DNA from: Utricularia gibba
Taxonomy: Eukaryota; Streptophyta; Magnoliopsida; Lamiales; Lentibulariaceae
Direction of reading: 5' to 3'
NCBI GenBank assembly: GCA_002189035.1
Contig: NEEC01000010.1
Span: forward strand, 1,674,001 to 1,738,000
DNA: 64,000 bases
The notes below the pieces were generated by a model, which had not been told where the DNA came from, did no database searches, and saw nothing but the letters and a program-made list of their open reading frames with translations. This document shows positions 15,767-64,000 of the stretch, piece after piece. The translations under genes were made by a program, and so were the position numbers. The stretch's first letter is position 1. Each line of letters opens with the position of its first letter.

Positions 15767-18542
15767 ATGGGCAAATCTGCTCCATCTTGCTTCAAGATCC
15801 TCGCCTGTGGGAGCCGCTCCGTCGACCATGACGACGTCCAAGCTACCGATGTAGGAACTCGCTTACTTTTTCTTTTCTTGAGCTGCATTTCGGTGCTGCG
15901 TTTGGTTTTTGTTACGGGGAAGCGTTGATTTGCTTTTAAGGAAGGCTAGATTTGAAGAAGCGGATCTGTCAATTGTTTTGATGTGGAATGGATTTGATTG
16001 TGACTTAGGCGGTTTCAATTTGATTCCTTAAGGATGATTTTTTGAATGTTCCTTGAAATGAAATAATTTTTTTTTTTTGGAATCTGCTCGTAGAGCAAGG
16101 GTACAAGTGATCGGCGTGGGTGGAGTTTCCGGAAGAGATCGGCTAGACATCGCGTGCTGACTGACAATGTCGGTCAAGAAGTCCCTCAGTCCGCAAACAA
16201 GGAAAACCATGAAGCAAATGGAGTGAACTTAGACGCAGAGGCTGGTTTAGATGTGACTGAAAAAACCCCAGTCGTTCAGCCGACTGAGGAAAAGATTGCG
16301 GCGTCTACTCAACAGGAATCAAAAATATCAGACATTCTTGTTGCGGATGAGGATAATTGCGAGGAACATTGCACCTTTGATGAGGCTAGTGTTATAAAAA
16401 TTCAGGCTTCCATTAGGGGATTTCTGGTAACCTTTCCGCAATTCTTTCAGACTCAATGACTCGCTGGTTTACCAGGAATGAGGGATGACTGTATGTTTTA
16501 TCGGCAGGCTCGAAGGTCGTTCTTGAAGGAGAAGAATGTTACTAGCTTACAAGCTGCTGTGCGAGGACACTTGGTTCGTAGGCAGGCTGTTGGGGCACTT
16601 CGGTGTGTCCAAGCAATTATCAAAATCCAAGCTCGGGTACGAGCTCAACGTGCACGATTGCTTGTTGATGGCCCTAAAGATTCTGCAAAATTGGTAGGAA
16701 CCAAGGAAAAAGGATCAGCTGCTGTGCGTGGCTGCTTTTTTAATCATAATTTGCGCGTCTTGACTGGAAGCGTTACTTGTCCCATAAGTAGCATTCTGAT
16801 TTGAGAATGTCTCTTTGTTACAGGCTAAGAGAGAAGCTGAACCAAATAGCAGATACACTTCCGTATCCTTCGACAAACTACATACCAATGCTTTTGCAAA
16901 TCAGGTAAACACATGTGCCTGGCGTCGTTTTAAATTCTTAAATTATAGGCACTTATGTTTTCAATGAATGCGTATTAAGCTTATGCTGTCAACGCCGAGG
17001 ACCAAATGCATCAGCATCAAATGTGAACCCAAGGCGGACTCCTGGAGATGGCTTGAAATGTGGACATCAGTTTCGACTGTCACCGAGGAGCGTCAGGAGT
17101 CTGAATCAGCTACCAGTGAGAAATCTGCTGAAAGCTCCGAAGATTCTGATGCTGCCATTAATGACAGTGTAGCTGCCCCCGTGAGCCGCTCAGTCACAAT
17201 TGAAGTGAAACCTGAATTGGCCGGATCAGGGGAAGGTTCTGAAGATGAAAACAATGCAATTGTTTATCATGCAGACAGCTTCAATCTTCAGCCACCGAAA
17301 CACGTAGCGCCTTCCCCCCTTAACCCGGGGCTGGTCGTTTCAGAATCTGCTCCCACCGAAATAGAGATGAATGGCATTGAGGCAGAAAAGTCTCTTTCCA
17401 AGAAGGAATCTGGAAGCGATGGGATGAAAGCCGAACCAAAACTTTTGTCTATTGAGCAACCGAACACTGAAGTTAAAAGATTTGCGAGAAAGGCTAGTAA
17501 TCCAGCTTTCATTGCCGCACAGTCGAAGTTTGAGGATCTGACTTCAGCTGCTACACCCCTGAAGTCTACCAGCTTCTCCAGTTATGACCAGTATTCTTCT
17601 GCCACTGATCAGTCAATCAAGTCAAGGGATAAAGTACTTCCCGATGGTGTTACATCGTCTGTTTCAGCAATTGGGATTGGTGGCTCTGAATGCGGAACTG
17701 AACTTTCTATTTCCTCTACCCTGGATTCATCAGATGCCTCTGAATCTGGAATCATTGAAATTCAACCGGAAACAGGAGTTTCATATGAGCCCAATCATGT
17801 TGCGAGCCAGGAGGTGGAGCCCGATCCTTCATATGCTGCGGCCAAGGAATTAGAGGAATCAGCCAATCCTGTAACAAACTCGCTTCTGATTGAGAACACC
17901 CCAACATCAAAGCAGAAGCCGTCACCTGAACATTCCCCAAGAAGCCATGTGAGTCAAATTACTGCCCCGAATCTCATGCAACACCCTCCAGCCAAGTGTC
18001 TGCTGCCAACTCCAAGAAGAGAAGTAAAGGGGAAAAAGCTGAGTCTCATCCCAAGTTCAGGCCTATGATCACTGAAAAAAGACAGCCTTCAAATCTCAAT
18101 CCAGATTCTTCCTCTAGAAACAGCGTGGAGCATTCACAGGAGCATAAATCCAGGGGTTCTAGAAACTCGTTTGGTTCAACAAAACATGATCACAAGGATC
18201 AGGACCCAAGAGATACCACTAGCAGCAGCAACTCTCTACCAGGATATATGCAAGCTACTGAATCCGCAAAGGCTAAATTGATTGCAAATGGTTCCCCAAG
18301 ATCAAGTCCAGATATACAAGACAAGGATACGTTCATAAAAAAGAGGCATTCTCTTCCTGGTTCAAGTGACCGGCATGGATCTCCTCGTATCCAGCGTTCT
18401 CTATCTCAGGCACAGGAGACTGCAAAAGGAAGCAACACAAAATCTCCTCAAGGTTAGCTCCTAACTAAGCCATTTACCTCCTTGAGCAAACATATTTCAT
18501 CTCACTCTGATACTCTTCCTAGACCGGAAATGGCGGCGCTGA
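15767..18542 (+). CDS. IQ67-domain calmodulin-binding protein (IQD32-like), with a one-base frame break
   Basis: Six exons: 15767-15850, 16094-16426, 16508-16693, 16824-16904, 16980-18452, 18523-18542. They give about 725 aa if the frame break is bridged. The protein starts MGKSAPSCFK, typical of the IQD30-32 clade. Three IQ motifs lie between about residues 128 and 190 (IKIQASIRGFLARR, SLQAAVRGHLVRR, IKIQARVRAQRAR), and the C-terminus has YMQATESAKAK, SPRIQRSLSQAQ and a final RKWRR. IQD proteins are microtubule- or nucleus-associated calmodulin scaffolds. The frame changes at the C4 run 17965-17968. Upstream codons read SPRSHVSQITAP, and one frame over the clade block ESHATPSSQVS follows. 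Without correction the protein stops at 18068 and loses its last 160 residues. The homologue adjoins the CCCH and ARF5 genes in Arabidopsis, as here. Confidence 0.9.
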
Positions 18543-19366
18543 TGAAATGGAGGGTTGCAAAAAACTGCGGTGGAAAAGAAATCACCCCTTCAAATCTACA
18601 GATTCTGTTTGTATCTTTTCAGAAACATACAAAGAGGCAAGACCTTGTGTTTGTAAATTTGAGTTATTTTTTCCCTTGGTTGGAGTGGCATTTGCTTGTG
18701 ACCTTAGCTTGTGTTTGTTCTGAACTGGAACCATTTTTTTGTGTTTGTTTGTTTGTTTGTTTTTTTGATGATGTGTTGAATTCTATTTTCAATTCCACTT
18801 AAATACCTTCATTTGTTTCATTCACACCATTCCATTCCCTGTAGAATCAATTAAATTAAATATCATTATTCTATTTTTCTTTAGGAAAATTATAATAAAA
18901 ATTCAATACTAAATCTTGAAAATTAGAAATTAATTTAATACGCAACGAATAACTCATATCCTCTGCGTCCATTGTTCTATTTTTTAATTGAAAAGAAATA
19001 TAAAGAAATGAGCATCTTTCCTCATTTTATACACACCAATGCCGTGTCCGACTTTTCAACCGGTTAGCGGCGGAACGCTGAAGAGGGCGGGGAGAAACCG
19101 TGGATGGATCTAGGGTACCCGCCTAGGGTTCTGTGGAACTCCCGCGCTGACGCTCTCTTCGAGTTTTGCTGCAATATGGAAATCTGACATCAAATTTGAC
19201 GCGCTGACATCAAATTTGGGAAGCAATCGACTAAAAATCGGGAAATCTGAGAGTGCTTAAAGACAGTTGGCGAGCAAGACGACCTAGAGCCGGGATATTT
19301 GATCGAATGCATAAGATTCACGTCCAATTTTATATATTTTTCTACTCGAATCAATCTATGGTTAAT
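18543..19366. other. spacer between IQD and CCCH genes
   Basis: Probably the IQD 3' UTR, followed by the CCCH promoter and leader. A (GTTT)n-like stretch lies near 18741-18760. A 60-base fragment near 18890 resembles the start of repeat family 1 (GGAAAATTATAATAAAAA). In-frame ATGs at about 19307 and 19358 precede the chosen start of the CCCH gene. Confidence 0.45.
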
Positions 19367-21796
19367 ATGGAAGGATCGAAGAAGGTGAAAAGGGTTACTT
19401 GGGCATCCGATCTTGATCTTTGTCAGGTACATCCTTGAAAGCTTTTTCGTGGAGAATTCGTTGAGGGATTTGTAAAATTGGGACACAGCATTTTTCACAG
19501 TTAATGTATGAAGAACAAAGGGGTTGCCCGAGTCGGGGTTTTAGTGTATGTTCTTAGTTTGTTTTTCACTGCGCAAGTGTGGTGGGCAGATGGATATTGA
19601 TATGGGTTGCTTGTTCAAGCGGCGTTTTTCAACTTTGTACAATCAAGACACAGGGGATCTTTTCAAAAGTTCATTTTAGTTGTTAACTGGCAAGGCATTG
19701 ACTTTGTTTCTTTGAAATCAAACTATCGGCCCGTTTTCAAACCGCATCAGATTGATCCAATGGTGAAAAAACTTTAACCACACTAAGCCTTATTGATGAA
19801 TGAACGGAGAATGGTGCTGAAGGGAAATGAAAATTTACAATGACAATTAAACGCGGTACCACCCAGTCAAAAACTATGCACAGCATCGGTTTTAAGTAGA
19901 TGATTGTTTTGTGCTGAGGCTGCATGCGATTGCAACTGTATTCACCTTGTTGCTAAAGTGGTGGTGAATTTTTACTTGTCCTAAAGTTGTGAGTAAGGTT
20001 AGTGGATGTATGAGGTTTTTGTTGCTTTGGTTCCTGAAATTGGGGGAGTCTTTTTAACTTCTCGTGGTATGGGTCTTCAGAGCATTGTTTAGCTGCTGGT
20101 TGACTTATTGAGCATTTTCTTTGTTTTTCTTTGTGGTGAATGTTTTAAATGTGTGCATCTACTGCATCATTCCAACTGGTGTTATATATTTTCTTGAGGT
20201 ACTTGGATTCAAATATGAGGTTGAATACTTCATTTTGTTTTTTAGGTAAGGATGTTTTTGGTGGATGAATCTCCTTCGGAAGTAGCTATTGGAACTCAAG
20301 ACCATCTCCAAGCTAAAGCATCAGGTTCAGCGCTACATGAGGTTCTGGCTTCGTATGCAAATCTGCCACCGGGATTCGAAGGATTGCAGCATGCAAACTC
20401 ATGGAGAGCGAAGCTATCTCAGATACCACTAGTGAAATGGAAGTTCCCTACTAGGGTGAGTATGTATATGCATTATCTTTTGCTTACATCGCTTGGTTTT
20501 TCTGTCATGTCCTTTCTTCTAGCTCAAATCCTGAAAGGAAAGAAGCAAGGATCGTGTGACTTCATATTTTAGATTCTAGCCTCTCAATCATGAGGCTGCT
20601 CTCATTTAGGTGTTGGTGTTCACCATCCTTGATAAGATCTTTTCTTGCGGTGCAGTTTCAAGTTAATAGGGATTGGAGTGTGGTTGCTGGAGAGGAAAGC
20701 ACAGAAGTAGAATGCCAGAATCAACGAGAACTGGGAATTTTAGAAGCTATATACCCCCGTCCGTCAGCCATTCCTCCCAAGTACAGTTCACATATCCTTA
20801 GCTATGTTGCATTTGTTCCTTATCATCGAACATGGATTGTCATTCTATCTGCGTTTTCGCAGCCCCTCTGGACTGGATACGGCGGAATACGCAAATAACG
20901 CGGAACTGACTCCAGTGATTCCGCTCACACCAATCGAAGAAGAAGACACTTCAATGGATCTGAAGCCTGGCTTCAATCCTGCTGGAAATGTTCAATCAGG
21001 ACATGGAGCGTCAGATGCGATGGCAACCTTGACTTCGATTATAGCAGGAACAGATCAGGGAAATCTGATAGATCGTGAGCTGCTTATCAAGATTCTAAGC
21101 GATCCGAAAATGGTGGAGCAGCTCGTTGCAAGCCATGGTCGGCCCTCTGACGTCCAAAGCATGCCCTCGAGTACACAGATCTTAACACCCTCTTCCTCTT
21201 TCCCCAGTTTCAGCCCCAGCAGCAAGCAACAGGATATACCTTCATCCGGAGCATCAGGAACGCAGCCTACAAGACTGCAGATTCTGAGTTCCCAATATGT
21301 TCCCACAGTGAGGCCATCACCAATGGCACCTTTGACTTCAGTTACCACCCACATTCCCAGACCAGATGTTATTCCTGCCACAGGGACCGTGATAGCGCCA
21401 CCCTTTTTTCCTCCAGGATCCATCCCAAATCTTAGGCATCCTCCAGCCGAAGTGGTCTCCACGGCATCTCCCTCGATGGCAGTTCCAGGAATGAAAGATA
21501 TCAACTACTACAAGAGCCTCATCCAGCAACATGGCGGAGAAAGACGAGAGCCCACACCTACACCGCAATTCAATATCCAAAGCAGCCAAGAGCAGACGAC
21601 AGCGATGGGGAAATCAAGAGAATCAAAGCCGAAGATTCTGAAGCCATGCATGTTTTTCAACACCTCGAAGGGGTGCAGGAATGGAGGTAACTGTCCTTTT
21701 CTGCATGAGTTAGTTCCTCAACTAAGAGTTGGCACATCTTCAGAAGTTCCTAGTACAAAAAGACTGAAACTTGACAGTGAAATTACTGGTTCATAA
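19367..21796 (+). CDS. CCCH zinc-finger protein (Arabidopsis At1g19860-like)
   Basis: Four exons: 19367-19426, 20246-20455, 20656-20780, 20863-21796; 442 aa. The N-terminus KRVTWASDLDLCQVRMFL and the segment SYANLPPGFEG mark this plant family. The middle is Pro/Ser-rich and probably disordered. One C-x8-C-x5-C-x3-H finger (C394 to H413, CMFFNTSKGC then CPFLH) sits close to the C-terminus, suggesting RNA or nucleic-acid binding in the nucleus. The molecular target is unknown. Intron 1 is long (819 bp). MEGSKK was chosen as the start; two more in-frame ATGs upstream could extend it. The gene is intact, with an AATAAA at 21913. It converges tail to tail with ARF5, the stops being only 415 bp apart. 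Confidence 0.9.
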
Positions 21797-22211
21797 TTGT
21801 CTGTTCTGGAACTGTTGGTGATGATTGCATAATTCCCCTTCCTGCTTCATTTGTCCCATGATCTTTTCAGTCTCCAGGTTCCATCTATTTGTTTCTCCAA
21901 TTGGTGTTTTGGAATAAAAGTCATGGTAAAATTAACACAGAACAAGAATGGATTCTATCCAGGTGCCCTTTTGATACATTATGCATTGTAGATGTATTGG
22001 AAGCTGATAGACAGTGAATTTGGAGTCTGCTTACATGCAAGCTAGAAAATGAATGCACAACAGTCATACATCACTAAAGCATACCACAACTTGGCTGCAT
22101 TTGCTCTTAACCATCATGATCATCATTAAAAGTTGCATCTAGCACCAGATACACCAACAAGAAATGAGTCTAGAACAAGCCCAATGTGGCAATGAATCCC
22201 ACCGTTCACCT

Positions 22212-25200
22212 TCAGCTGGAATTCGAGCCATTGACGCCTTGAATGCCAACCGAGTTCAGGAGCTGCATTCCCTCTTCACCCATCTGCTTAACTTCCGGTG
22301 GAGAAAGTATTCTGATGCACCGTACACAGCCGACGAACTCACTGCAAAGGCGATGGGTATGATGCAAGTTCAGTTTGCCGAATAACTAGTCGGTGATGGT
22401 AAGCCTAACACAAAGTACTTACTCCCAAGGATCGTCTCCAACAAGAAGAACATCATTCTCAAAGTCCACATACACCAGCTTCCATCCAGATCCAAGATCG
22501 TTCAGCAGGCCTTCCAGGCCGAACATGCGCTCGATTTCGGAACGTAGCTCATTGTAGTCCTTGAATCCTGAAACGTCTATGGACCTTCCAACAGATCCAG
22601 CCTTTTGTATCTGCCAAAGATTATCATTGGGAAAAGATGGTAGGGAAAGTAAGTACAAGATATGGCTTTTTAGGAATGTGCATACCTTGGTGTATGTCCG
22701 GAACCTTGGAGTAGCTTGGTTCCATGAACTGGGCTGCAAGATGTTCCTGTCATCGAAATCAACATTGCTCGATGATGCTCCGCCTGAGTTATCCGCAAAT
22801 TCTTGCATGGAGAAGCCCTGTGAATCTGCTAAGCTTGCTGATGTGATTTGTGATTGAACATCTTGGTTTGATGAAATGTTTCCTACGATATAATCACATG
22901 GGCTTTGGAAATCGCCCTTCTTTAACGCAAAAAAGTCATCCAACACCATGCTGGACACTGAAGGATCAATGATTGTGCTTCCACTGTTGCTACCCTCTGC
23001 ATTTAGATAACCAAAGATGTCGTTCTGGTTGTTGTTCTCACCATTGAAGCCTTTCAGACCGCATAAGCTAAACGGCAGGTTCGAAATGTCGTGTTGGGAC
23101 AGCACTGCCGGAATACTTGTGCATTTTGTGCTGTTGAATTGAGCATCCCAAACCTCTTGGCTTTCTGGTGGCAGAGGAATGTAGGGGTTGTCTGAAGATC
23201 CTGAATGGTCATCAAATTTCCGAACCATGCACAGAGAACCCGCATTCCGGACAACCCCGATTGAGTCAGAGATCGGAGGACCTGCCACTAAATCATCCTG
23301 TCCCGGATACTGAAGCAGGGGATTCGGACCAGCGGACTCCAATTGGGATGAATTACCAGGTTGGCCTTCAATCCATGCACAAGCTTGCTGAGCTGAAAGG
23401 CTGCTATTTTGTTCCACATTCCCCAAAGCGCTTACAGGGCATTGCAGTTTCTCCTCGGAGCCTCCCGGTGTTGGAAAATGCTCTGCTACTAGTGCACTTT
23501 CCGGTACGCTAAGCTCAGGGGCAGTTCCATAGCAGGCATGATTACCAACTCTGTGCACCTTCCCATTTAACATCACATTTGAATTTGTGGCAGGATCATT
23601 TTCTTCTCGTGGGAAAACATCCGCATCCATCTTCTGTCTTCCTATCGGTTGCAGAGGTTTTACTTCTTGTGACACTGAATCCGCTGCGTCTTGCATAACA
23701 GGTGCAATGCAGCCTGCGGAGGAGCTCAATGTGTTAGGAGGTTGTATGAGAATATTTCTTAGTTGATCTGACCACATCCCAGGGACGGCAGAGCATTGAA
23801 AGTTGGCCCCTGAACCATCGGATACTCGGAGGAACTGCCTACTCATCAGAGAATCCCACTCCGCCGGTGCCCCTGCGCCAGAAAAAAATGCTTTTCATGA
23901 TGATATTCCATGGAAGAACTACCCTCTCAGAGAAAGGGAAGTACCCATGAAAGTAGAGTGGAAAGGGCGCTTCATATTTGCAGCTAGAGAAGGGAAAATG
24001 AAGAGGCTTTCAGGTGTCTCGATCTCCCAGGGACTAACTCTGTTTCGCTTGTCGCCACAGCCAGGCTCATCCCACTCCACCTGCAGACATAGCAGAAGAG
24101 CTTCTACTCATATGACGCCCACATTGTTTTTGTCTCTGTTTCAACGTCTGAGTACCTGAAGACTCCGCCATTTGGAGTTGGGCCACCTCAGAGGATCCAG
24201 ATCAGATATGCCGGTGATTGTGCCCATGTATCTGAATACATATGAGAGAAACCATTTACTACAAGCAGATTTCAAGTGATTTTGGTAAGTGAAACACTGA
24301 AGCACCTTCTTTTATTTGATTCTTCAGTTTCGAACATCATTCCAAATCTCATGCCAATAGAAAGCTGGGTACCAAAGACGGCTTTCCGGTATCGAGCTAA
24401 CGGGATGACGAACTCTGAAGAGCATGCCCTGCAACGTGCATGAAATTAAGTGTCAAATAGTCTGCTTTTTCTACTTCAGTTTGTGGTAGATACAGACAAG
24501 TATTCAGAAAGAAGATACCTGGGATTGTAGAAAATTGTAAATGGACTCCGGTTAGCAGCAGCATGTGCCGCTGCGGCGAGGATTCCGATATGCATGCTGT
24601 CCGCAGACAAAACCGAAGATGGCAACGTTGCTTGCTGACGATTAGCTCGCCTGACTCCCAGTAAAAGCTGTGACTTTTCATCTCTGCATATCATGATACA
24701 CAGTTCAAGCATGAACTTTTTTAGAAGTTTGAGAAGCATGAAGCTTTACCTGACAAAGAGAATTGCATCGCCTGCTCTGAGCCTCTTTGCACCGACAAAC
24801 ATACTCCAACCGGTCGTTAGTAAGTGCCTTTTCGGCTGCCCTGAATACAAAACGGTAACAATGAACATTTCAATACTGGAAACTGGAAAAAGCACAGGCT
24901 TTTTCTCTAGAGAACACCCAAAAAGGCTAACCCCGGTATATATGACGAAAGGTCCAGGTATTATCATGTAGATCACGGACAATAAGCTCTTGAGTTGGAG
25001 GTTGCATGGAATAATCCTGCAAAAAAAGCTCAAGAACATGAATGGAGATAATCTGATAACCGAAAAAGCTACAAAACTGCACGCTCTTATACCAGTAGTG
25101 GAAAGAGCTTCTCTGCAGCTCTTCTTGGGACGGAGAAGCCACCATGGGTGCTTGTATCACTGGCTGTCAAGGTCTTGCAGAAGAACTCTGTTGGATGCTT

Positions 25201-26026
25201 ACAAGGCTTCATTCCAAAATCGGGTATAGGAATGACATCTTTATCCTGAAGGCAGAAGACAGATCAAACTCAATCTCATCAATGGTAATGTGAAAAAGTG
25301 CAGCTAGACTTACAGAGTTAACAGGCTGCAAGCTTATCTGAGCATAGATTTCATCTGTGTCCTTGTCTCCCTACAGATTGGAAACGAGGAAGCACGTCAG
25401 CACAACACAGAATTGTCAGTAAATTGCAGGTTTTGTGAGAAATTTGGCTCTTCCGTTTCCTGAAATCACAAAGAGAAAAATGCTGAAAGCGTACATGGAG
25501 TGTGACATTGTGCACTTGGCACAACAGCTGAGGAGGGAGATTTGGGTACTTGGGTATCTGTGCTGTTGCTGCTCTGTTGGTGGAAACTGCAACCTGTTAA
25601 AAAAGCATTTGAATTCTTCAAACCATCAAGAATTTGCAGCAAGGAAGCATAGGAATTAACGAACAACTAAATGCACCCAGTGAAAAAGCAATTTTAATGT
25701 CCAAAACAAGAACACAGAAGCTTACCTGCTCACTGTGTCCCTGTGGGAAGTAGTAGACAAGGCTCCCAACTTGAGGAAGAGTTACCAGTGGACCGGCGCA
25801 AGCATGCCAAAGCTCTGAATTTATTTGCTTCCGGGGAACTACAATAACCCAAAAAACAGCGTTTAAATTGAAAATTGAGCTGAAAAAATGAAGGCACTTG
25901 TGAAGAAGAAGCAGTGATCTCACGAGTATGTTCCTGCATTTCCTTCAACAATTTCATTCCCTCAAGCAGATTGCTTCCACCGCCAACAAAACCAACTGGT
26001 TTCACCTTTTCTTCAACCGACGCCAT
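22212..26026 (-). CDS. ARF5: auxin response factor 5 (MONOPTEROS)
   Basis: Fourteen exons on the minus strand: 26026-25924, 25838-25726, 25593-25495, 25370-25314, 25245-25093, 25016-24932, 24840-24750, 24683-24519, 24428-24306, 24231-24156, 24080-23945, 23872-22686, 22610-22423, 22341-22212. The total is 2706 bp or 901 aa, against 902 in Arabidopsis. The order is dimerisation start [14 protein letters not shown]3 domain ([21 protein letters not shown] split over exon ends), ancillary domain (VPLARYRK-like VIPLARYRK), a long middle region in the 1187-bp exon, and a C-terminal PB1 domain ([30 protein letters not shown]). ARF5 is an activating ARF binding TGTCTC-type elements, repressed by Aux/IAA through PB1, and sets embryo axis and vein patterning. 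Phases agree at every junction. The TTG-led eight codons above the ATG were excluded. Confidence 0.97.
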
Positions 26027-28932: not shown

Positions 28933-28936
<4 letters not shown>

Positions 28937-35322: not shown

Positions 35323-41640
<6,318 letters not shown>

Positions 41641-43529: not shown

Positions 43530-45604
43530 ATGGATGTCCGACGGAGGTCTGCCGAAGCTAGGAGCCCTACCATGAAGAAGGATCGGGTGAATGCGGGAGC
43601 TGTGGATCATCCTTCGAAAGCTGCGGACGCTCTCCCGCGACTCCTGTATTTGACTAACGGTGCTTTCTTAATCTTGTTCTTCTCCGTCGCCTACTTTCTG
43701 CTCCATCGCTGGAGGGAGAAAATCAGAAATTCCATTCCTCTTCATGTCATCACCGCGTCTGAGCTCGGGGAGTAATTTGCCTAATCGCGTCGATCATTAA
43801 TCTCATCCGTTTCTTCGGAACCGATTTCGTGCAGTCGATTATATACAAACATGAGGCAGATTCAGAGTCGGACGATGATCAGCAGTGCTTGATTGTAGAA
43901 GATTCCCGCAAGATGCATTGCCCCTTGCCGCCTCTGCCGTCGAAGGCGATTTCTAGTCCGAAAATTGAAATGGATCTACCCCTGGAAGACGCGGAGATTG
44001 TGAATCGCGTTGTTTCTGGTGAAATCCCATCTTATTCGCTTGAATCAAAGCTTGGGGACTGTTTTAGGGCGGCGAAGATACGTCGCGAGGCAGTTCAGAG
44101 ACAGACGGGGAGGTCCTTGGAAGGACTGGCTCTGGAGGGATTCGATTACGACTCCATTTTAGGTCAGTGTTGCGAGATGCCGGTGGGTTATGTCCAGATT
44201 CCGGTGGGGATCGTGGGGCCTCTGTTGTTAAACGGAAACGAATACTCTGTACCGATGGCGACCACGGAAGGTTGCTTGGTGGCGAGCACAAACCGTGGCT
44301 GCAAAGCCATTCACGCATCTGGCGGCGCAACGTCCATTCTCGTTCGAGATGGGATGACCAGAGCTCCGGTAGTGAGGTTTCCATCAGCCAAAAGAGCCTC
44401 CGAATTGAAATTCTTCATGGAAGACCCGCTCAATTTTGACACGCTATCTGTCGTTTTCAACAAGTATGATAATTCCCCTACCTTTCTTGACTCTTCTCAT
44501 TCATCGTTGCCGTAGCGCAATATTGACTGAATTTCCAAGTTCCGTTAGTTATTCTAAAAATTATGTATACATTTTTTTTTTTCAGGTCCAGTAGATTTGC
44601 AAGGCTCCAAAGTGTTCAGTGTGCTATTGCTGGCAAGAACCTTTACATTAGGTTCAGCTGCAGTACTGGTGATGCTATGGGCATGAACATGGTTTCCAAA
44701 GGTGTTCAAAATGTCCTGGACTTTCTTGGAAACGACTTCCCAGATATGGATGTCATCGGAATCTCTGGTGAGTCCCATATGTCTCTCCTTGATCCTTTTT
44801 CTATAGACTTGGGAGTTACCTAATTTGATGTTCTCTGCGGTGTGATCTGCTTAGGATCCCCTTGACTATATACCGGCTTTCCTTTTATGATTGAAGTTTC
44901 GTTTCTTATCTTATCTGTCTTGTTGTAGGAAATTTCTGCTCTGATAAGAAACCCGCGGCTGTAAACTGGATCGAAGGACGTGGAAAGTCAGTGGTTTGCG
45001 AGTGCATAATCACTGGAGATGTTGTGACCAAAGTGCTGAAAACGACCGTACCCGCGCTTGTTGAACTCAATATGCTTAAGAATCTCGCTGGCTCAGCCGT
45101 TGCTGGTTCCCTCGGTGGGTTCAATGCTCATGCTGCAAACATCGTGTCGGCAGTTTTTATCGCTACCGGTCAGGATCCAGCGCAGAACATCGAAAGCTCC
45201 CACTGTATCACCATGATGGAACCTGTCAATGACGGCAGGGATCTCCATATCTCAGTAACGATGCCCTGCATCGAGGTACCTTCATCCATCTTGCCGTATC
45301 TTTCATGAGTTTTAGTTGCCCTGAGAGATCGGTAACACCGTAAGCGCAATTCCCGCAGGTTGGTACCGTCGGCGGCGGAACTCAACTAGCCTCCCAGTCA
45401 GCTTGCCTCAACTTACTCGGCGTGAAAGGCGCCAACAAAGAGTCCCCAGGCTCCAATTCCCAACTCCTGGCAAGAATCATCGCCGGCGCCGTATTGGCCG
45501 GAGAACTCTCCCTCATGTCCGCCATCTCCGCCGGACACCTTGTCAAGAGCCATATGAAATACAACCGTTCGAGTAGAGACGTTACGAAGGCCGTCTCTTC
45601 GTAA
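43530..45604 (+). CDS. HMGR: 3-hydroxy-3-methylglutaryl-CoA reductase, with a one-base frame break between the two membrane segments
   Basis: Four exons: 43530-44463, 44586-44767, 44929-45275, 45359-45604, the standard plant HMGR structure; 569 aa after bridging. Two ER membrane segments lie near the N-terminus ([17 protein letters not shown]; about [16 protein letters not shown]), with the catalytic domain in the cytosol. It carries HMG-CoA-binding [12 protein letters not shown] and TTEGCLVAS (catalytic Glu), NADPH-binding [12 protein letters not shown] and GTVGGGT, catalytic Lys in [10 protein letters not shown], Asp in GQDPAQN, and His in [12 protein letters not shown], whose serine is the SnRK1 target in other plants. 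It makes mevalonate from HMG-CoA, the rate-setting step of cytosolic isoprenoid synthesis. The frame is broken at the G4 run 43767-43770. As written, translation stops at 43775 after 81 codons, directly before the second membrane segment. Confidence 0.94.
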
Positions 45605-51000: not shown

Positions 51001-51354
51001 ATAAATACACACAGGCTGTGGCTTCTGGATGCAGGAGAGGGAAAAAAGACAGAGGAAGAAGGAAAGAAGAAGAGAAAGAACAAATGCAGCCGCTGCCGAC
51101 GACAACATCCCTGAAGCCACTCCAAGCTCTGCAACAAGCGGTGAGTTACCAATGGACAAAGCCCCCTCCACTACACCTCCCAAAAAGCGGGTGCTCCACA
51201 AGACAAAACCTCTTCCCCGCCGCTACGAAACAGGAGCAGGCGAAATCGACAGCTATGGATATGGCTCTCTGTCATAAGCCTGTCCACCTTCATCCTCTTC
51301 TGGTTGGGATCTTCATCATCCAGTCCCCTGAACCAGCACCACTTCAGCAGGTGA
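48010..51354 (+). CDS. proton-pump-interactor-like coiled-coil protein (At1g20970-like), with a one-base frame break near the C-terminus
   Basis: Five exons: 48010-49863, 49990-50184, 50295-50393, 50462-50965, 51035-51354; nearly 1000 aa after bridging. The first 600 residues are acidic, low-complexity and probably disordered, with repeated EEKEEEVSV-type units. The PPI signature follows: FLVRIPQYDGENLREQI, LRKELDVLKENLLKTEE, a coiled coil, then SGEFRKEYGRLN. A Lys/Arg/Glu-rich helix (REKRQRKKERRRER) and a C-terminal membrane anchor end the protein. The canonical PPI coiled coil between LREQI and LRKEL is shortened. PPI1 binds the autoinhibitory tail of the plasma-membrane H+-ATPase; a like role here is inference. 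At C4 51215-51218 the written frame runs on to SYGYGSLS and stops at 51277. One frame over, PPPLRNRSRRNRQLWIW leads into a hydrophobic anchor, as expected for this family. Confidence 0.85.
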
Positions 51355-52297: not shown

Positions 52298-52305
52298 TAT
52301 AAAAA
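52298..52305 (+). promoter_or_regulatory. TATA box of the PLATZ gene
   Basis: TATAAAAA, 450 bases above the PLATZ ATG. The long leader probably contains an intron, because several GT/AG candidates lie between. Confidence 0.45.
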
Positions 52306-52747
52306 TTCAACCCCCGTCACTGTCTTTCGCTCGTAGTCTCTCGTCACCGTTTCACGGCCGCTGTCTTTCTCTCTTCTTCTTTACCTTCGCTGCGCGTTCG
52401 TCGATCAGTATAAACCTTTTTGAGCACGGAAGAGGTTATCTTGGCAGCCCAGGTCGTGTTTGTGTTTCTCTGGAATCCAATTTCGTTCCTTCTTCCGTCT
52501 TTTTGTGCTGATGTTTCTGTGATTTTTATCGTCGTGCAGATTAAGGGGTGTGGTTGGTTTTGTCTGTTCTGGTTCCTGGGCTGGAGAGCGTCATGGTATT
52601 TCGCTATTTTCTTCTACATTTCGACACTTTTTGTTCATGGAAGATCGATTGGAGTGGATGGCACGCTGAAAGGGGATTTTGGTTTCTGTGCTGGTGATTT
52701 TTTGTTGATTTATTCGTTGGGATTGATAGGTGAGTTCGACTCCGCTA

Positions 52748-53596: not shown

Positions 53597-54523
53597 AACA
53601 CAAGATTCGCCGGCGTATAGCAAAAAACAGGGTACAAAAACACACTATACTTGCATAATACATGGGGCTGTGTACGCATCGCTGGGTAATGTATGTTTAT
53701 TTGTATATGTTGCCACCTGCAAAATACATATTTCTGCTCAAAATCCCTTCTCTTTTTCACTCCCCAAATCAATAGCCATAAACGACAACACCCATTTCAT
53801 CATATTCTTTTTCTCAGTATGTTAAAACCCGAACCAACAACACACGGTCTAGTCTGCATTGCCGGACTGCCTGAAACCCCCGGTCCGAACGGCGCCGTTT
53901 CACCCCCCTCCCCTGAACCACAGCAACCTCAAATAGGAGACGATGGGCTTCCGTGTCCAAGTGTCCCGGTGCTTATCCGTAAAACAGTAATTACAGACGG
54001 TATCTCGTCCAAGTACGCTGTGGGAACTGTGGAAGATTGGGTTCGCCATGCTTGAGGGACACGCAACCCCCGGGCCCACTCCCCAAACCCTACTTCGTTT
54101 TTGTCCTATTGATGAAGATAACTCGATAGATCGTCTTCCTCAGACAGCTCGACTCCCAGGAACTACCGCACGCACGCAGGCATTGGTTTCTTCCTTCATC
54201 ATTTATTTATTTATTGAGTGCAGTTACTAACGGCCGTGTGCTTCTGAATCTGAATGGGCCGTCGCTTTCCATCCAGAAAGATTCACAAAATTAATTATTT
54301 CTTTTTGGATAATTCCGACGCCAATTTCCCCTTCCACTGTTTTATATTAATTGGAAATGTGTGGTGGGAAAATAATTAATTATTGGAGAGCCGTGAGGAA
54401 TCCGCAAGGGCATCCATCACTCGTCCTATCCGCCCGATCTTATCCCCTTTCTGCTTCAAGGCTTACTGGGCTCGGCCCAGCCCATACCAAGATGATGTGT
54501 AAAGTATCAGATTATATCTAGGA

Positions 54524-54800
54524 GTTAGTTTGATAGTAAAAATATTAGTATTTTTAACTATAGTTTAATTAAGTATATATATATTTATTTAATTGTAAGA
54601 TATATAAAAAATTATATGTTTGATGTCCAAAAATAAAGGCATGAGGTCTAGATATAATTTATATCACTAACATATTCAAAAAATAAGTATGTAATTGATG
54701 TAAACATGTAAGATTGATGCATATATGCTAGTTAATCAAAATAGATATTAATGTAAATAATAATTTGTATTTTCCAGATATATTAAAATATAATTAAATT
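54524..54800 (+). repeat. dispersed AT-rich repeat, family 2, copy 3
   Basis: Shares TTTGATAGTAAAAATATTAG, TTCAAAAAATAAGTATGTAA and GCATATATGCTAGTTAATCA with the other family 2 segments. Approximate ends. Confidence 0.4.
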
Positions 54801-55104
54801 CATTATGTGAAAATATTTAATTTAAATACTTGGAAACATATTTGTTAAGAGTGTTTTATTAAATAATTTGAAATTAACTTTGTTATACTTATGTTATATT
54901 GGACCAAACTTTTTATTTATCAGCATTTATGAATTAAATATTCGTGAAAATGAAGCATATAATTAATGCTTATTATCAATTATTACAAATTATCTATTCT
55001 AAACATATCTATCAAACACAAAGTCATTTTAAATATAATATATCTTATCTAAATACAATTAATCTAAACACATCAATTAAATGTATTTAATTTATTTTTT
55101 AAAT

Positions 55105-55340
55105 AATAGAGTCTGTTCTATAATTTAAAACTGTGTTTCAGATTATATAAAATATAATCAATTTTTAAATTATATAAATAGAATCAATTTGAAATTATAA
55201 AATTATTTTATATTATAATATAAATTATATTACAAAATTTAATAAAATAAATAAATATTATACAATTTAATAAAATAAAATAATTTTATAATTTAATATT
55301 ATAATATGAAAAATATTTTTAAAATAAATAAATAATAATC
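55105..55340 (+). repeat. dispersed AT-rich repeat, family 3, copy 3
   Basis: Runs in parallel with 30750-30960: CTATAATTTAAAACTG, CAGATTATATAAAATATAAT, AAATTTAATAAAATAAA and TTTAATATTATAATATG occur in the same order. Confidence 0.5.
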
Positions 55341-55815
55341 ATCATTACAATTTTTTTATGTAATCATCAATTTAATCAATGAAATATAGATTAAAAAAAT
55401 CAATAATTCATGAAACTAATAAAATCGGTCATTTTTTCAAAAAATCAATAATTTATGAAATTCAAAAAAATATTATAGAATCTGAATTTTTACTTTAAAA
55501 AGAAAATTATTAAATATTGAAATATTTAAAAATTAATAAAATCGGTCATTTTTTCAATTGACGGTTTCTCCCGTGTGAAAGGAAGACGGTTTCTTGGAAA
55601 GGGGGAAAGGGTAAGGATGTGATGTCAGAGCTGACTCATCCACCGACCCCAAAATAAAAATTAAAATCAAATTCAAACATTGACTGGCGCACAAGTCTTG
55701 GGTTCCTTACCTTGGACGTGTTTCTAGAGAAGGGGATGGTTTGTTCACATGTATTTATATTATAGGGCTTAAGTCATCATTTAACTCCATAATCATCTGC
55801 TTTAGGGAAAATCGG

Positions 55816-56413
55816 ATGGGCGTATGCTTCTCAATCTCCTCTCGATCGACCGCCTCGGGATCCCTGCGCGGGTCGCCGCCGCCAATGTCGTGTCCCATAG
55901 CGGGAGCTACGGCAGTTCCCACTCCCAGTCACCGTCGATCAAGTTCTCAAGTCGCTGGACGTCTCACTCCAGGCGTTCTTCCTGTGCGATGCGGATTCGT
56001 TATCGTTCGACCACTACATACCGTCTCTCAAACCCGATCAGCAGCTCGGATCCGCTACGATCTACTTCCTGATGCCTTCGTCGAAGCTCCGGTACCGTCT
56101 CGCTGCGTCCGATATGGCGAGTTTAGCGGTTAAGGCCAGCGTCGCGCTAGGTCACGTAACCGATTTTTCGAAATCGAGCCGCGGAAGGCGGAAATCTCGA
56201 ATTTCTCCGGTTGTGTTCGTCGCGCCGCCAGATCATGAAGTTGATGCTATGAAAATCGCTAATTCGGCGGTTATTCCGTCGATCCCCACCGGATCAAAGG
56301 GAACGACAGTGCAGATGCGCAGAAGCCATTCTAAGAGGAGGAAATTGGCCGCTGGAGCTGTCAAAATCCGGCTTACCACCATATTCGAAGGCTCCGTGCT
56401 CGTCCTCGATTAA
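55816..56413 (+). CDS. DUF4228/PADRE-family protein, with two one-base frame breaks
   Basis: Intronless, about 199 aa when bridged. The start MGVCFS fits an N-myristoylation and palmitoylation signal, common in this family. The core is recognisable in three frames: AAANVVSHSG, then ELRQFPLPVTVDQVLKSLDV, then ADSLSFDHYIPSL and YFLMPSSKLRYRLAASDMA, ending in a basic region and IFEGSVLVLD. Frame changes fall at GGG 55870-55872 and GGG 55902-55904; one extra G at each gives one continuous frame. PADRE genes respond to pathogen and abiotic stress, and their biochemistry is unknown. As written, no frame encodes the whole protein, so the locus is either a pseudogene or carries sequence errors. The intact 3' part argues for errors. 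Confidence 0.82.
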
Positions 56414-56715
56414 GCGATGTTGATGATGCACATACAGTGCAAGGGGGCTGACGTTTGAAAACTTTGACCTAATGTGAACTTTGGAAAGAAGGCGAGAAGA
56501 ATAGAATTTAACAGACTACAGAAGTTGAATTGACCACCGCAGCAGAAACGCCGGCGCGACGCAGCTCTTTCGGTGGAGTCTGAATTGGGCCTACTACTGG
56601 ACCACATTCGAGTTACGTGGGCCCATTAAGAGCCATGAGCCCGACCCGGATTATTTGGGCTTGGTAACTGAGCTGTTCTCTCTCTCACACACACAATTAA
56701 TTAATTAATTAAATA

Positions 56716-57078
56716 TAGAGGTGGAGATGAGATATCTGTCAACTCGTATATTGTCGTGTTGACTCGTGATGGGTTGAACCCATTAACTGTAATTGTAAAA
56801 AATGGACAGAGATGAGTTCATAGTACACGATTATAATTATACTCAATGGGTTAAACAGATTCGGTTTGAAACGTAATTCAATAACAAAAAATATGTTTTA
56901 AATCAAATGAGCTATGTAGTCCAATTAGTTGGACTCAAAACTGATGAATTAAATCCAATTTATGTTAATATGTATAAATTGTGTAATGATTCGGATCAAT
57001 TTATAAATCAATACGAATCTATTATATAGATCTGTGGTCGTATGCTGACTCAACGGATTCCACCTATGTCCACCTCTA
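56716..57078. mobile_element. MITE, 363 bp, with TIRs and a perfect 9-bp target duplication
   Basis: The left end TAGAGGTGGAGATGAG mirrors the reverse complement of the right end, TAGAGGTGGACATAGG; the first ten bases are identical. AATTAAATA flanks it directly on both sides (56707-56715 and 57079-57087). The interior is non-coding. The TIR sequence resembles plant hAT elements, but a 9-bp duplication fits Mutator-like insertion, so the superfamily is open. Confidence 0.85.
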
Positions 57079-57452
57079 AATTAAATACATGCTTAAGAAC
57101 GATTTGATTCTATTTTTTCAATCGATTTGAAACACGAACAATTCATACAATTAATTCATAGTTTTTATTATTTAAGATATTAATTGAAAGGTTTTTATAG
57201 AAACAAAAGGAGCAGAGATGAACGTTGAGTTCCCATAGTTATAATGAATCACAAATGGGTAAAGGTAGCGGAGTTGCATAATAATCAAAGTACAGCCATC
57301 CATCTCAAGTATAAATAACCCTCACGAACGTCTTCAGTTCCAGCGGCCAGGCTCAGGTGCACTCCAAAGGCAAGGCGACGAATCAAAGCTTTTTTGTACC
57401 TTTTTTTTTTTCCAAGATTGTGTGTGGTGTTGCTCCCCAATCCCCTTACACT

Positions 57453-59594
57453 CTACACCTTTGATTCTCCCACCTTCATCTCATCCTTGACAACTACCTC
57501 CACGCCTTCTTTCAGTAATCTGATCTCTTCCTCAGTCAAGCTGTTCTTCACATGGGGGATCGCCTTGCTCTGCGCCTGCTTCTCTGCTTCCACGGCCCAA
57601 CTGTAGATCACCATGCCCACTACTGCCACAATCATCCCTGAAATGTTCTTCAGGGTGAGCTCTGAATCGAACAGAAACCAGCCCAGTGTCAGCACGCATA
57701 CTGTCTTCATGTGGCCTAGAACTTGGAACGACACCGCGGAGAAGCGGCCGATGCATAGGTACTGGCTCACGTTGCAGAACACGGCCAGGGAGCATGAGAG
57801 CACAATGAAGAACTGCATAGAATTGTGACCAGGGGTGGGTTATTACTTTGTGTGTAAATAACTCGGGTGCTGGGAGACAAACAGAGAGTGGTTCTTACTA
57901 TTGCCCCTCCAGTGAAACTGTAGGCCAGGATCAAGTTTCCAGAGAGGCAGTAGTCGACTATGGGTCCAAGCACGAGGAGAGAACAAGCCTGGATTGGGGC
58001 CGTTTTACTCAACAACTCGAAAGATCCGATGCTGTACTTCTTCTGCAACGAGCCAATCAACTGCATACACAACGAACATCGATGAGCCATGTTTCTGCGG
58101 CATAAATTGGGCTAAAGTTCCTAGCCAAGGACCAGGGGCATAAATAGAATCAATCCTGATGCTATTTAGCACGCTTTGACCATATCCGGGACACTGTGAG
58201 GAGAATTGAAGGGCGGAATGGAGAAAAGACAAGGAGAGTTATGGCTCCGTAGGCGACAACTCTCAATAGGCATATAAAGCCACACTGAGCATGCAAGGAC
58301 TGCTGCAACACTCGGAGAGTTGCTAACAAAGCTGTAAAAGGTACTCACAATTTGTTGCAGAGATGTTGAGAAAACTGCGACACAGGCACATATAAATCCC
58401 TTGGCGTTGACTTTGACATCTGTTACAGTACAGACGCCAACGCCAATAACCACAACCACGACAGCCGATTTAACTTCATTCGAATACTTTTTGCTGTGAA
58501 GGATCCACTCCATTACGCAAACTACTGGAATCATGCTCAGTTTAGATATCTTCACAAAGATAAAACAGTTAGTTAGGAGAAGAATTTATCACGATAGATG
58601 GAGAGTTTTGTGTGCCTATTATGTTAAGTAATAATTGTAAAAAATTTTCTGGCAGGGGATATTAAATCATACCTGGTAAAACCCAACTGAGTTTAGCATG
58701 AGGCTAAAATTCATCCCTGCAATGGACATATTTGCAATGACTGAGAACCACAGGAGTTCCCAGAAAGGAACATGTTTTGCTGAAGATAGTCCAGTGGCAT
58801 TGGATATCATGCCAACCAGCGCAGTAACCGCGAAATGGAAACCTGTCAATGTCGTAGCTGCAGAAAACAAACACGAATCAAGTTCATAGCATAACCAGTA
58901 AGGCTGGATCTCCGTGACTTCAGCATGGATTCAAAGAGCAGGACAGATGATCTCATTAAAAAAAGAATAAATGTTAAAGCCTCACAAGATTACCAAAGAA
59001 TCTAACTTTTAACAGAAGTTGGGGATTCAACGCAATACAATTCCTTTACAGTGATTCAAAACCCATCAGACGCCTTATTAGGAAAGAATCAGATTCACCC
59101 AGCATCACATATAACTTGAGATACGAGTATTTATATCTACTAATTTCATGAAAACTTTGCTAAAGCCCAATTGTGGGAAAGCGAATTAGATCAGTCACAC
59201 GATGGAAAATGGGGCAAAGTCGAATAAGGAGCATAACGGTTAACATTTAGAAAAACTGCACCAGTAACAAATCAAAAATCATGCACCACACAAAAAATCC
59301 ACGAATCGCGTTCCTGAGGGTGTGATACAATCCAGCTCCAGAAACAGCAGAAACCAAATCCCTCATGAACAGAACAATAAAAATCAAGATCCATCAAGTT
59401 CCAGCTGCATTCAAACTCAACCCACATCTAACACACCCGATTACAAAGTCAGCAAGAAACTAACCAAAAGTGAAGCGATATCCAGCGGCCGACATCAACT
59501 GCTTGTTTGCCATAATGATTCCTACAGAACTAACAACATTCATAGCCCAAGCGCCAACATCCGAAACCGCTGATGATCTCCTCTCGGTCTCCAT
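57453..59594 (-). CDS. UDP-rhamnose/UDP-galactose transporter (URGT type)
   Basis: Five exons on the minus strand: 59594-59465, 58857-58673, 58549-58349, 58060-57899, 57812-57453; 345 aa, the family length. The protein begins [19 protein letters not shown]. Multiple membrane helices of the drug/metabolite transporter fold follow, with URGT signatures [80 protein letters not shown] and a cytosolic charged tail. URGTs sit in the Golgi membrane and exchange UDP-rhamnose and UDP-galactose for UMP to supply cell-wall polysaccharide synthesis. The first intron is long (607 bp). All junctions are GT-AG with consistent phase, and the gene is intact. Confidence 0.94.
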
Positions 59595-62038
59595 CACAAT
59601 TCACGCTTCTACTGCACTCCCCCACGCAGAACCCGGAAATCAAAACAGGCCAAACACGCGGACAGATCCGCCGCTCACGAGGGCGGATTGACAAAAACTA
59701 GACCTTTCAACTAGATCTCCCTCAAGTCACATGAAATTAACACGAAAACGAAACTACGCGCTCTGTCGGAGGAAGAGAGCAACGGCGAATGCTCCACGGT
59801 CACCATGAAAATGTGATTTATAAACGACTCACTGACCATAGAGATGTGATTCAAAAGCCACGCAAGCTGTCATCAAAACCCAAAAAAATAATAAAATAAA
59901 ATAAAATAAAAACAAAAACAAAAGAAGACAAAAAACAAAACACAATCGCCGACGTTTACTTTTTCTAAACACCCGATCGCGCGCTACTAATCTACTTAAT
60001 TAATCCGATTAGTGCTTCTTAATTACATCCTCCGCTTCTCCATTTTTCCTGGGAAACATCCTTCTACTGGATCGCCGCCACAAACCCAGCAGCTATTCCT
60101 ATCACCGAGTGATTGATTACCTGGTGACTGAATTGATTCCCTAGGCGCACACGACTCGCCGGTTCCTTCAGGGAAACGGCATTCCACGGCGTTTACTTTC
60201 CGAGGGTTTACTTCCAGGCGCCCCCGCCCCCTGCTAATTAATTGTGATTAGCCAGGGCGATTAGCGTGGCGATGCCACGTCAGACCGCTCCTCCCCCAAG
60301 GTGATAACCGAAGACGAAGGAAGGTACATAACCAACTGAATAATTGAATCCCCCCAACCACTGCCTAATGAATCCAACTTATTGTCCTCAATCATATTAA
60401 AAATCAAAAGCAGTTCAATTGGAGAGAATTAAATTCAAAATTAGATAGAATTACAATTCAATAATATTTTAAAAATATAAAAAATGCAAATTATTGTTTC
60501 AATGAATTAAATTGAACTTGAAACAATACAAATTACAAATTAAATTATTTTAGAAAATGAAAAATTACTTTTTATTAAATAATATATATTAAACATGAGT
60601 TTGTATGAATTATACATTAATGAAAAATTACAAAGTTATGTGATATGTGTGATTTTATACTTTAAAATTTTTTACTATTAATTTTATTTCAAAAATATTA
60701 TAATTAATGTGAATATTTTTTAAATTAGATTGTAAATTTTGTATAAACTGCGTATAATTATTTATTAATTAAATTACACCTTGTCACAAAAATAATTTTA
60801 TTATTATGAAAATTGATTTTTCTCACGAATTAAATTAAAATAGTCTCTTAAATGAGTAATTACCAACTTTGTTTTCCGATAAAATTGGGCTACAAGAAAA
60901 GGAATTAATTACGATGTTTATTATAAGAAATTGCGTTAGATAATTTAGATGCTATCGGAATTAGGGACCACCGCCGTATGCTACCCGTCTCCCACCACCG
61001 GAATCTCCACCTACCGTCGCCTGCCGCTACTGGTCCTGAACCTCTAGATGTGTAGTCTACACACAGTCGAGGACTCGAATTTGTAGTTGATAATCGACCT
61101 GGGGAATGCTGTAAGTGGGGCTCTTTGACCTTCGCGTGCTTTTCTACGTCGGGTTATTTTCAATTGGCTTTTCCCGATTTTGAAATTGGGGCTGCTCTCA
61201 GTTTTTCCGGGATCTTTTGTTCTGATTTCTTGTGGAACTAGCATTGTCTCTCCTCCATCTATAATGCTGCCTGGTAGGGGTACTGCTAGCGCATCGGGTT
61301 GTGCTTGAAGTTCCCGTGCTCATTGAATTTCAACCGGGTAGTTCCCGTGTTCATTGAATTTCAACCTGGTCTGTTGGGCTTCACACTTCTTGCAAGTTTT
61401 TGCCCAGAAATCGATGTTTACATGCCAATTGCTCTGGCTGGCAACTTTTTCAGTATTCCGCTCCAGACGAGGACTGTACTTTGTTAAGGATTTGTAGACC
61501 CACGATGGCTGATTTTATCCCAGGGACGGCGCCGATTGTTAACGATGACGTTGCGAATCCCATTTCTGTGGCTGCGCGTGCTTCGCTAACCTGCTGCATG
61601 CCAGTTTTTGTTTTCCAGGTGTTATTGGAGTCCCAGAAATCCGTCAGCCAAGTTACCTGAATTTTACTCAATTGGCGTCCACTTACCGACACATGTTACC
61701 ACTGTTCATGAGACTGAACCGGCGGAGCCGAATTTCTTGTGTCTTGATTGTCCGCCGCGAGCCCGGTTCATTCCACAAGGTCACTCGACCGGGATTGGTT
61801 TCTGGACCGCATTTGTGTGGAGGAGGAAGGATTGGCTCGACATGGGCATAGATTATACAGAGTCAATGGGCACTTGATGGTGTAAAAGATTGAAAAAGGG
61901 GAGATAAAGATTTCATTTGTAAGGTGGTGAAGTAGGCGGATATCGTCGATACAAGCACAAAAGAAGATGGCCTTAGAAGGGACAGGAATGCGAAAAGGCA
62001 TTGATGTAGAACATATTTGCTGAGAAATTGGAGCTGTA
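59595..62038. other. divergent spacer between URGT and the terminal PPR gene
   Basis: The URGT leader and promoter fill the first several hundred bases. An AT-rich stretch runs from about 60400 to 60950. From 60960 to 61870 composition is gene-like, with short frames such as MADFIPGTAPIVND (61504) that I cannot place in a family. They may be leader exons of the PPR gene or a decayed gene. A 31-bp tandem duplication lies at 61309-61370. Confidence 0.4.
61309..61370. repeat. 31-bp tandem duplication, two copies
   Basis: Two adjacent 31-base units beginning AGTTCCCGTGYTCATTGAAT, differing at two positions only, so the duplication is recent. Confidence 0.9.
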
Positions 62039-64000
62039 ATGGCTTCCATGATACCAGCGACAGTTAGGAACTCGGTGAAGCTCAACCTGGAGGAGTACAA
62101 GAAACTCTCGCCGTCTCAGGTTGAAAAGGTAGAGAAATGCGTTGTTCCATTTTATCGCAACTGGCCTAATTTGTACATGATACTGAAGAAGGTAACTTTT
62201 TTAGACAAGTTATACATCGGAAGATTTGCATAAGGCTTTTGAATTATCCAGCTCGGGAGTCAGAGGAGGTTCTCCATTGGAATGGAAAAGGACGCTTGGT
62301 TCATCTGATTATGTTCCGCTACTCCGGGAATGTGTGGAGAAGAAGGCAGTTTCTGGGGTGGAATCTGTTCATGCCCACATCATAAAAACTGGGTTTGCGC
62401 GTGATTTGTTTCTTGTTACGTCCTTGGTTAATGCATACTGTAAAAATGGGATGATAGAGACTGCTCGTAAATTGTTCGAGGATTTGCCAACGAGAAATGT
62501 TGTCACATGGACTTCATTGCTCTCTGGCTATGTCCAGAGCTCGCAGCCCGAACGCGGATTAGAGTATTCAAGGAAATGTTGGAAGCAGGATCACACCCTA
62601 CAAATTATACTTTTGGAATTGTGTTAAAAGCTTGTTCTTCTTTGCTGGATATAGAAACGGGGAAGCAGATCCACGGATGTGTTGTGAAGTCCGGATATGA
62701 GCATGACACAAGCACAGGGAATGCACTTTGCAGCTTGTATTCCAGATGCCAGAAACTGGACATGGCAATTAGGGCATTCCAGAGGATCAAACAGAAGGAT
62801 GTGATTTCATGGACTGCTGCAATTTCGGCTTGTGGTGATAATGGGAACTCCACCATGGGGCTGCACATGTTCCTTCAGATGCTGGATGATGGCATCGAGC
62901 CAAATGAGATCACATTGGCCAGTGTCATTGGCTTGTGCTGCACAATGCATTCTCTGGAGCTAGGTTGCCAGGTCCACTCTTTGAGCATAAAACTCGGATA
63001 TAGTTCTGATTTAGCCTCTCGAATTCACTCATGTATCTGTACTTGACAAATGGGCGCATCCCCGAGGCGAAGGAGTTGTTTTATGGATTGAACATGGTGA
63101 CCTTGGTTGCTTGGAATGCTTTGATTGCAGGCCATGCTGATATAATTAGCAAAGTTGAAGACTGTGTCTCAGCCTATACATATGCAATCGAGGCCCTTAA
63201 TTTGTTCCAGCAAATGATCAGATCTGGAGTGAGACCTGATTCGTATACATACTCAAGTGTATTGACTATCTGCAGTAGCATAGTAGCTTTGGAGCAAGGG
63301 GAACAAATTCATGCTCAAGCCATAAAAACCGGTTTTCTATCTGATGTCGTCTTGGCCACAGCCCTTGTGAACATGTACAACAAATGTGGAAGTATTCACA
63401 GGTCATGCAAAGCTTTCTCTGAGATGTCTTCAAGAACTTTGATTTCCTGGACTTCCATGATTTCTGCACTCGCACACCATGGACATTCACAACAGGCTCT
63501 AGGCGTATTCGACGACATGTTGTCGCTCGGGGTTCGACCAAACAAGATCACCTTTGTTGGGGTACTTTCAGCCTGCAGCCAAGCAGGAATGGTTGATCAG
63601 GCAACAGCCTATTACTCCATGATGACAGAAAAATACAAGATCAATCCAGTGATAGACCATGTTGCTTGCCTGGTGAACATGTTTGTCAGGTTGGGCAGAA
63701 TCGAGGAGGCTTTCGATGTCATTAAAAATGCAAACATTGCTCCAAATGAATTCATATGGTCAATCTTGATAGCTGGGAGCAGAACTCATGGTAAGCTAGA
63801 CCTGGGATTTGAGGCTGCTGAGCAACTGCTTGAACTTAAACCAAAAGATCCAGAGACCTATGTCTTGTTATTGAGCATGTACCTATCAGCTGGAAAATGG
63901 AAGGATGTTTCTAGAGTACGGAAGCTGATGAAGGACGAGAAGGTAGATAAAGTTACAGACTGGAGCTGGATTGCCATCAGAAACAGGGTTCACGCCTTCA
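62039..64000 (+). CDS. PPR protein, PLS class, truncated by the window end, with two one-base frame breaks
   Basis: A proposed first exon, 62039-62128 (MASMIPATVRNS...), joins 62205 onward across a 76-nt GT-AG intron; the first exon is tentative. The rest shows tandem PPR units: HAHIIKTGFARDLFLVTSLV, NVVTWTSLLSGYVQ, DVISWTAAISACGDNG, VVLATALVNMYNKCG, TLISWTSMISALAHHG and an E-like region (WSILIAGSRTHGKLDLG). The frame shifts by one base at GG 62556-62557 (PERG|IRVFKEML) and again near 63020-63023 (SSDLAS then NSLMYLYL). After that it stays open to the window edge. No DYW domain is visible before the edge. Such proteins bind organellar RNA. It could be a decaying PPR copy, but the breaks match those in five other genes. 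Confidence 0.82.

What the first reader, a model, noticed from the sequence alone, without database searches (positions are those of the whole stretch)
17960..63023. Eight one-base losses break six otherwise well-conserved genes
The frame breaks at 17965, 41413, 43767, 51215, 55870, 55902, 62556 and about 63022 are all the same kind: one base too few, usually in a C or G run of 2-5. Each time the family sequence resumes immediately in the next frame. No insertion and no convincing in-frame stop was seen. Real pseudogenes should show mixed lesions, and single-copy genes such as HMGR or XRN3 rarely decay together. Homopolymer under-calling in an unpolished long-read assembly fits best. Anyone using this annotation would otherwise report six truncated proteins.
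Basis: partly seen in the sequence, partly recalled or inferred. Interest (0 to 1): 0.75.

Follow-up and report, generated by a model that had tools for sequence, protein, structure and literature searches.

The report
Assembly errors, not broken plant genes
The six apparently broken plant genes are almost certainly intact in the living plant: the assembled sequence drops single bases from runs of G or C across the whole genome, a known error of early PacBio assemblies, so truncated genes read from it should not be taken as real.

Summary
The breaks are real in the sequence. Seven of eight are supported as one-base losses by a homeologous gene (IQD, HMGR, PPI, PADRE twice) or by protein repeats (the PPR-DYW gene, twice). 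The XRN3 break at 41413 is plausible but unconfirmed.

They are not local. In four conserved families (GRAS, KCS, BAHD, HSP70; 138 kb of matched coding DNA) I found 35 intron-free joints, 30 with a one-base-loss phase, on 20 contigs, and no clean insertion. Of 31 classifiable losses, 22 fit a G/C run of 4 or more, against 31 of 234 simulated random deletions (p = 4e-11). Risk climbs steeply with G/C run length; A/T runs are spared. One locus assembled twice (C316 and C412, 8 kb) differs by 4 substitutions and 13 gaps, all missing from the same copy. Coding sequence after the tested breaks is under purifying selection.

This is a consensus error of the assembly. Size, contig N50 and a 6.8 Mb contig fit the published PacBio HGAP/Quiver assembly of Utricularia gibba (inferred). 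Quiver-polished PacBio assemblies are reported to keep single-base deletions in homopolymers, in one case nearly all in G or C runs.

The parts
17960..17968 (+). one-base loss in a C run of the IQ-domain (IQD) gene, large exon 16968-18457
   Evidence: frames; DUF4005 found after the break; homeolog C451:6413747-6414217 open across it
41408..41420 (+). probable one-base loss in a C run of the XRN3-like gene's low-complexity tail
   Evidence: frames; no paralog; codon statistics not supportive; unconfirmed
43764..43770 (+). one-base loss in a G run of HMGR exon 1 (membrane-anchor region)
   Evidence: homeolog on C451 has G5 where the window has G4; C213 paralog also open there
51213..51220 (+). 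one-base loss in a C run of the proton pump interactor-like gene, before its C-terminal hydrophobic tail
   Evidence: C451:6379603-6379767 open across it
55868..55878 (+). first one-base loss in the PADRE-domain gene
   Evidence: C451:6376031-6376624 full length and open; PADRE profile score 70 bits from the piece, 86 bits when read through
55900..55910 (+). second one-base loss in the PADRE-domain gene
62554..62560 (+). one-base loss in a G run of the PPR-DYW gene
   Evidence: PPR motif straddles the point when read through
63015..63030 (+). second one-base loss in the PPR-DYW gene, position uncertain by a few codons
   Evidence: PPR array continues in the next frame to an intact DYW end past the window
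62205..64000 (+). PPR-DYW gene, otherwise intact, continuing about 330 bases past the window end
   Evidence: (locus L095)
44072..45568 (+). HMGR catalytic exons, open

Best explanation
The eight breaks are consensus errors in a long-read genome assembly. The consensus step loses one base from G or C runs, with risk rising steeply with run length, and leaves A/T runs largely correct. The genes are intact in the plant. The assembly is most likely the PacBio RS II / HGAP / Quiver assembly of Utricularia gibba. Shown here: the genome-wide deletion-only, G/C-run-specific pattern; the double-assembled locus that differs by deletions from one copy only; the open homeologs; and purifying selection. 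Inferred: the species, the platform, and that each individual break is an error.
For: Survey of four families: 35 intron-free joints, 30 of one-base-loss phase, 17 with exactly one base missing, none with exactly one base extra, on 20 contigs. Frameshift-aware alignment: 35 distinct -1 events and no clean insertion. G/C-run enrichment against 234 simulated deletions, p = 4e-11. Rate by run length: no G/C run of 7 was seen in about 50 kb of intact coding DNA, while five losses fit runs of 7. Three DELLA-type genes and several HSP70 genes are broken this way. C316 versus C412: 4 mismatches, 13 gap events, all missing from C316. Homeologs open at five of the eight points. dN/dS after the breaks 0.16 (HMGR), 0.22 (IQD), 0.47 (PADRE). 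Literature: a Quiver-polished PacBio assembly kept 561 single-base homopolymer deletions (PMC4888979), and another kept 205 indels, nearly all in G or C runs (PMC4832174).
Against: No reads or second assembly of the species could be consulted. One HSP70 break is shared by two near-identical copies (C304 and C241), so at least one lesion may be genuine or systematic. Some losses lie in runs of only 2-3 or outside runs. Some surveyed copies (for example C402 GRAS, C3:261k, some BAHD) may be true pseudogenes. Species and platform rest on matching statistics only.
Confidence: 0.96

Rival explanations
1. The genes are real pseudogenes or are decaying after whole-genome duplication, with mutations fixed in the plant.
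For: The plant has duplicated genes (homeologous block on C451, dS about 0.45), and some surveyed gene copies do carry stop codons.
Against: Only one-base losses, no insertions or stops at the tested sites, otherwise intact frames under purifying selection, and several DELLA and HSP70 genes would have to decay together.
Confidence: 0.03
2. A biological deletion bias of this compact genome shortens G/C runs in living cells.
For: The pattern is genome-wide and run-dependent; a small-genome plant with a deletion tendency is biologically conceivable.
Against: It would have to fix frameshifts in many conserved genes while selection still acts on the downstream frame. The same locus assembled twice differs almost only by losses in one small contig, which is an assembly, not an evolutionary, signature.
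Confidence: 0.01
3. Programmed ribosomal frameshifting or transcript editing restores the proteins.
For: Frames resume immediately after each break.
Against: Sites share no motif beyond G/C runs, differ between paralogs of one family, and number dozens across unrelated families.
Confidence: 0.005

Closest known systems
Residual single-base homopolymer deletions in Quiver-polished PacBio assemblies (PMC4888979, PMC4832174)
   Same: one-base losses; G or C runs; survive Quiver; rate similar (561 in about 2.9 Mb, or 1 per 5 kb, against about 1 per 4 kb of conserved coding DNA here)
   Different: reported for bacterial genomes and corrected there with Illumina reads; here seen in a plant nuclear assembly, measured without reads
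Gene-fragmenting deletion errors in nanopore and other long-read assemblies (Kastor PMC12007338; Homopolish PMC8011154)
   Same: deletions in homopolymers of 2-8 bases create false frameshifted genes
   Different: in the Kastor example A/T runs gave about twice as many errors as G/C runs; here G/C dominates and A/T is spared

Membership tests
Long-read consensus homopolymer deletion error | losses greatly outnumber insertions | tested here: met
   30 of 35 joints one-base-loss phase, 17 exactly -1, none exactly +1; no clean insertion
Long-read consensus homopolymer deletion error | losses sit in homopolymer runs, with risk rising with length | tested here: met
   22/31 fit G/C runs of 4 or more against 31/234 simulated; rates by length
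Long-read consensus homopolymer deletion error | genome-wide, not confined to one locus or gene class | tested here: met
   20 contigs, four unrelated families
Long-read consensus homopolymer deletion error | same DNA assembled twice disagrees at such sites | tested here: met
   C316 versus C412: 13 gap events all in C316, 4 substitutions; C241 versus C304: 2 one-base gaps, both in C304
Long-read consensus homopolymer deletion error | accurate reads show the longer run | not testable with these tools
   no reads or second assembly held
PacBio HGAP/Quiver assembly of Utricularia gibba | contig N50 about 3.4 Mb, 581 contigs, a 6.8 Mb unitig | tested here: inconclusive
   contigs seen give N50 about 3.45 Mb of 100.09 Mb, with a 6.82 Mb contig, as in the papers; but the contig number here is 516, not 581
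PacBio HGAP/Quiver assembly of Utricularia gibba | one of four DCL loci lacks the N-terminal dimerization domain | tested here: inconclusive
   four main RNase III loci, Dicer_dimer found at three, as published; a missing hit does not prove absence
True pseudogenes | mixed lesions and relaxed selection | tested here: not met
   one lesion type; dN/dS 0.16-0.47 downstream of the breaks

The most novel reading that the evidence does not exclude
A subset of the losses is real: in this compact genome G/C runs are shortened somatically or evolutionarily, and some duplicated genes have been inactivated by it.
Probability: 0.03. Interest if true: 0.7.

Novelty: not a real feature. Interest (0 to 1): 0.15.

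Why it matters
It is a quality warning. About one false frameshift per 4 kb of conserved coding sequence would damage a sizeable share of gene models in this assembly. If this is Utricularia gibba, a plant studied for gene loss and genome shrinkage, claims of truncated or missing genes based on this assembly alone need checking against transcripts or short reads. The published DCL3 truncation was checked by its authors with RNA-seq and RACE and does not appear to depend on this artefact.

Tried and rejected
Genome-wide homopolymer spectrum of the window: no clear cut-off, uninformative without a reference. Codon-usage scoring of frames: agrees at most sites but fails in low-complexity stretches (XRN3, PPI tail), so not used as proof. 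Best-single-insertion scoring without tolerance: over-fits divergent references; replaced by a tolerance-based version with a simulated control. A search for solved structures of the XRN3 tail found nothing relevant. The primary U. gibba genome paper is not in the library. Idea that the published DCL3 truncation is the same artefact: not supported.

Full report
The observation. The eight reported positions were read in all frames. At each, the conserved reading frame moves in the sense of one missing base. Five of them lie in genes with a homeologous copy on contig C451, where IQD, HMGR, PPI and PADRE genes lie in inverted collinear order. All four homeologs are open across the equivalent points, and HMGR shows the difference at base level: a G run of four in the window where the homeolog has five. 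The two PPR breaks fall inside a PPR array that otherwise runs intact to its DYW end about 330 bases past the window. The XRN3 break is weaker. The gene is XRN-like (N-terminal exon, recognised by eye), but position 41413 is in a low-complexity tail, the original frame stays open, no paralog was found, and codon statistics did not favour a switch. I count seven supported breaks and one plausible one.

Is it local? No. GRAS, KCS, BAHD and HSP70 families were searched over the held 100 Mb genome. Consecutive matches on one strand were joined and their phases computed. Thirty-five joints have no room for an intron; 30 have the phase of one lost base and 17 are exactly one base short, while none is exactly one base long. 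Frameshift-aware alignment of the DNA at these joints gave 35 distinct one-base losses. The few nominal gains were all ambiguous: next to a stop, at an intron edge, at 34% identity, or equal to two losses or to one loss plus an extra codon. One joint (C480) proved not to be a frameshift. The lesions lie on 20 contigs. Three DELLA-type genes are broken at C-rich points of the same conserved stretch, which is not credible biology.

What kind of site? For each classifiable loss I asked which single-base losses fit nearly as well and recorded the longest G/C or A/T run among them, then did the same for 264 random deletions simulated in intact genes. Twenty-two of 31 real losses fit a G/C run of four or more against 31 of 234 classifiable simulated ones (Fisher p = 4e-11); A/T runs show no excess. 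Scaled to the surveyed length, intact coding DNA holds about 537 G/C runs of four, 100 of five, 8 of six and none of seven, while the losses fitting those lengths number 10, 5, 2 and 5. Risk therefore climbs steeply with G/C run length. The run counts come from genes chosen as intact, which makes this a rough estimate.

A direct view of the error. Contig C316 (38 kb) repeats part of C412. Over 8 kb they differ by four substitutions and thirteen gap events, and every gap is missing sequence in C316. Natural alleles would show mostly substitutions and gaps on both sides. C241 and C304 differ by 16 substitutions and two one-base gaps, both in C304.

Selection. After the breaks the frames still evolve as proteins: dN/dS against the C451 homeologs is 0.16 for HMGR, 0.22 for IQD and 0.47 for PADRE. 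This argues against old decay but cannot exclude very recent loss.

Source. Total length (100.09 Mb), contig N50 near 3.45 Mb and a 6.82 Mb contig match published figures for the PacBio assembly of Utricularia gibba (N50 3.4 Mb, HGAP, PMC5793159; a 6.8 Mb unitig, PMC8333044), and the pattern of one DCL locus without a detected Dicer dimerization domain also fits. The contig count differs (516 here, 581 published). This identification is an inference. HGAP ends with Quiver polishing (PMC5793159), and Quiver-polished PacBio genomes are reported to keep single-base deletions in homopolymers (PMC4888979), in one case nearly all in G or C runs (PMC4832174). That is the signature seen here. In another published long-read example A/T runs dominated instead (PMC12007338).

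Verdict. Corrections: HMGR has three loci here; the assembly was probably polished with its own long reads but not with accurate short reads; the XRN3 case needs a cDNA; and individual surveyed lesions may still be genuine pseudogenes.

Noticed in passing
window 16968-56410 and C451:6376031-6414217: The window has an inverted, collinear homeologous block on contig C451 (IQD, HMGR, PPI, PADRE), dS about 0.45, pointing to a whole-genome duplication.
   Followed up: partly
L099 (C451:6413700-6414300): The homeologous IQD gene itself shows a one-base-loss-like frame break near its 3' end.
   Followed up: no
L085 (C304:2235967-2236567) and L088 (C241:17492-18092): The same HSP70 frame break is present in two near-identical copies, so it may be a real lesion or a systematic error.
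   Followed up: partly
L096 (C316) and L097 (C412): Small contigs such as C316 duplicate parts of large ones with many missing bases; they look like poorly polished leftovers.
   Followed up: yes
contigs C1, C2, C505, C507: Several contig lengths are exact multiples of 2,500 (8500000, 6192500, 3452500, 642500), as if cut at fixed positions.
   Followed up: no
C213:2761967-2762970: One of four DCL-type loci has no detectable Dicer_dimer match, in line with the published DCL3 truncation.
   Followed up: partly
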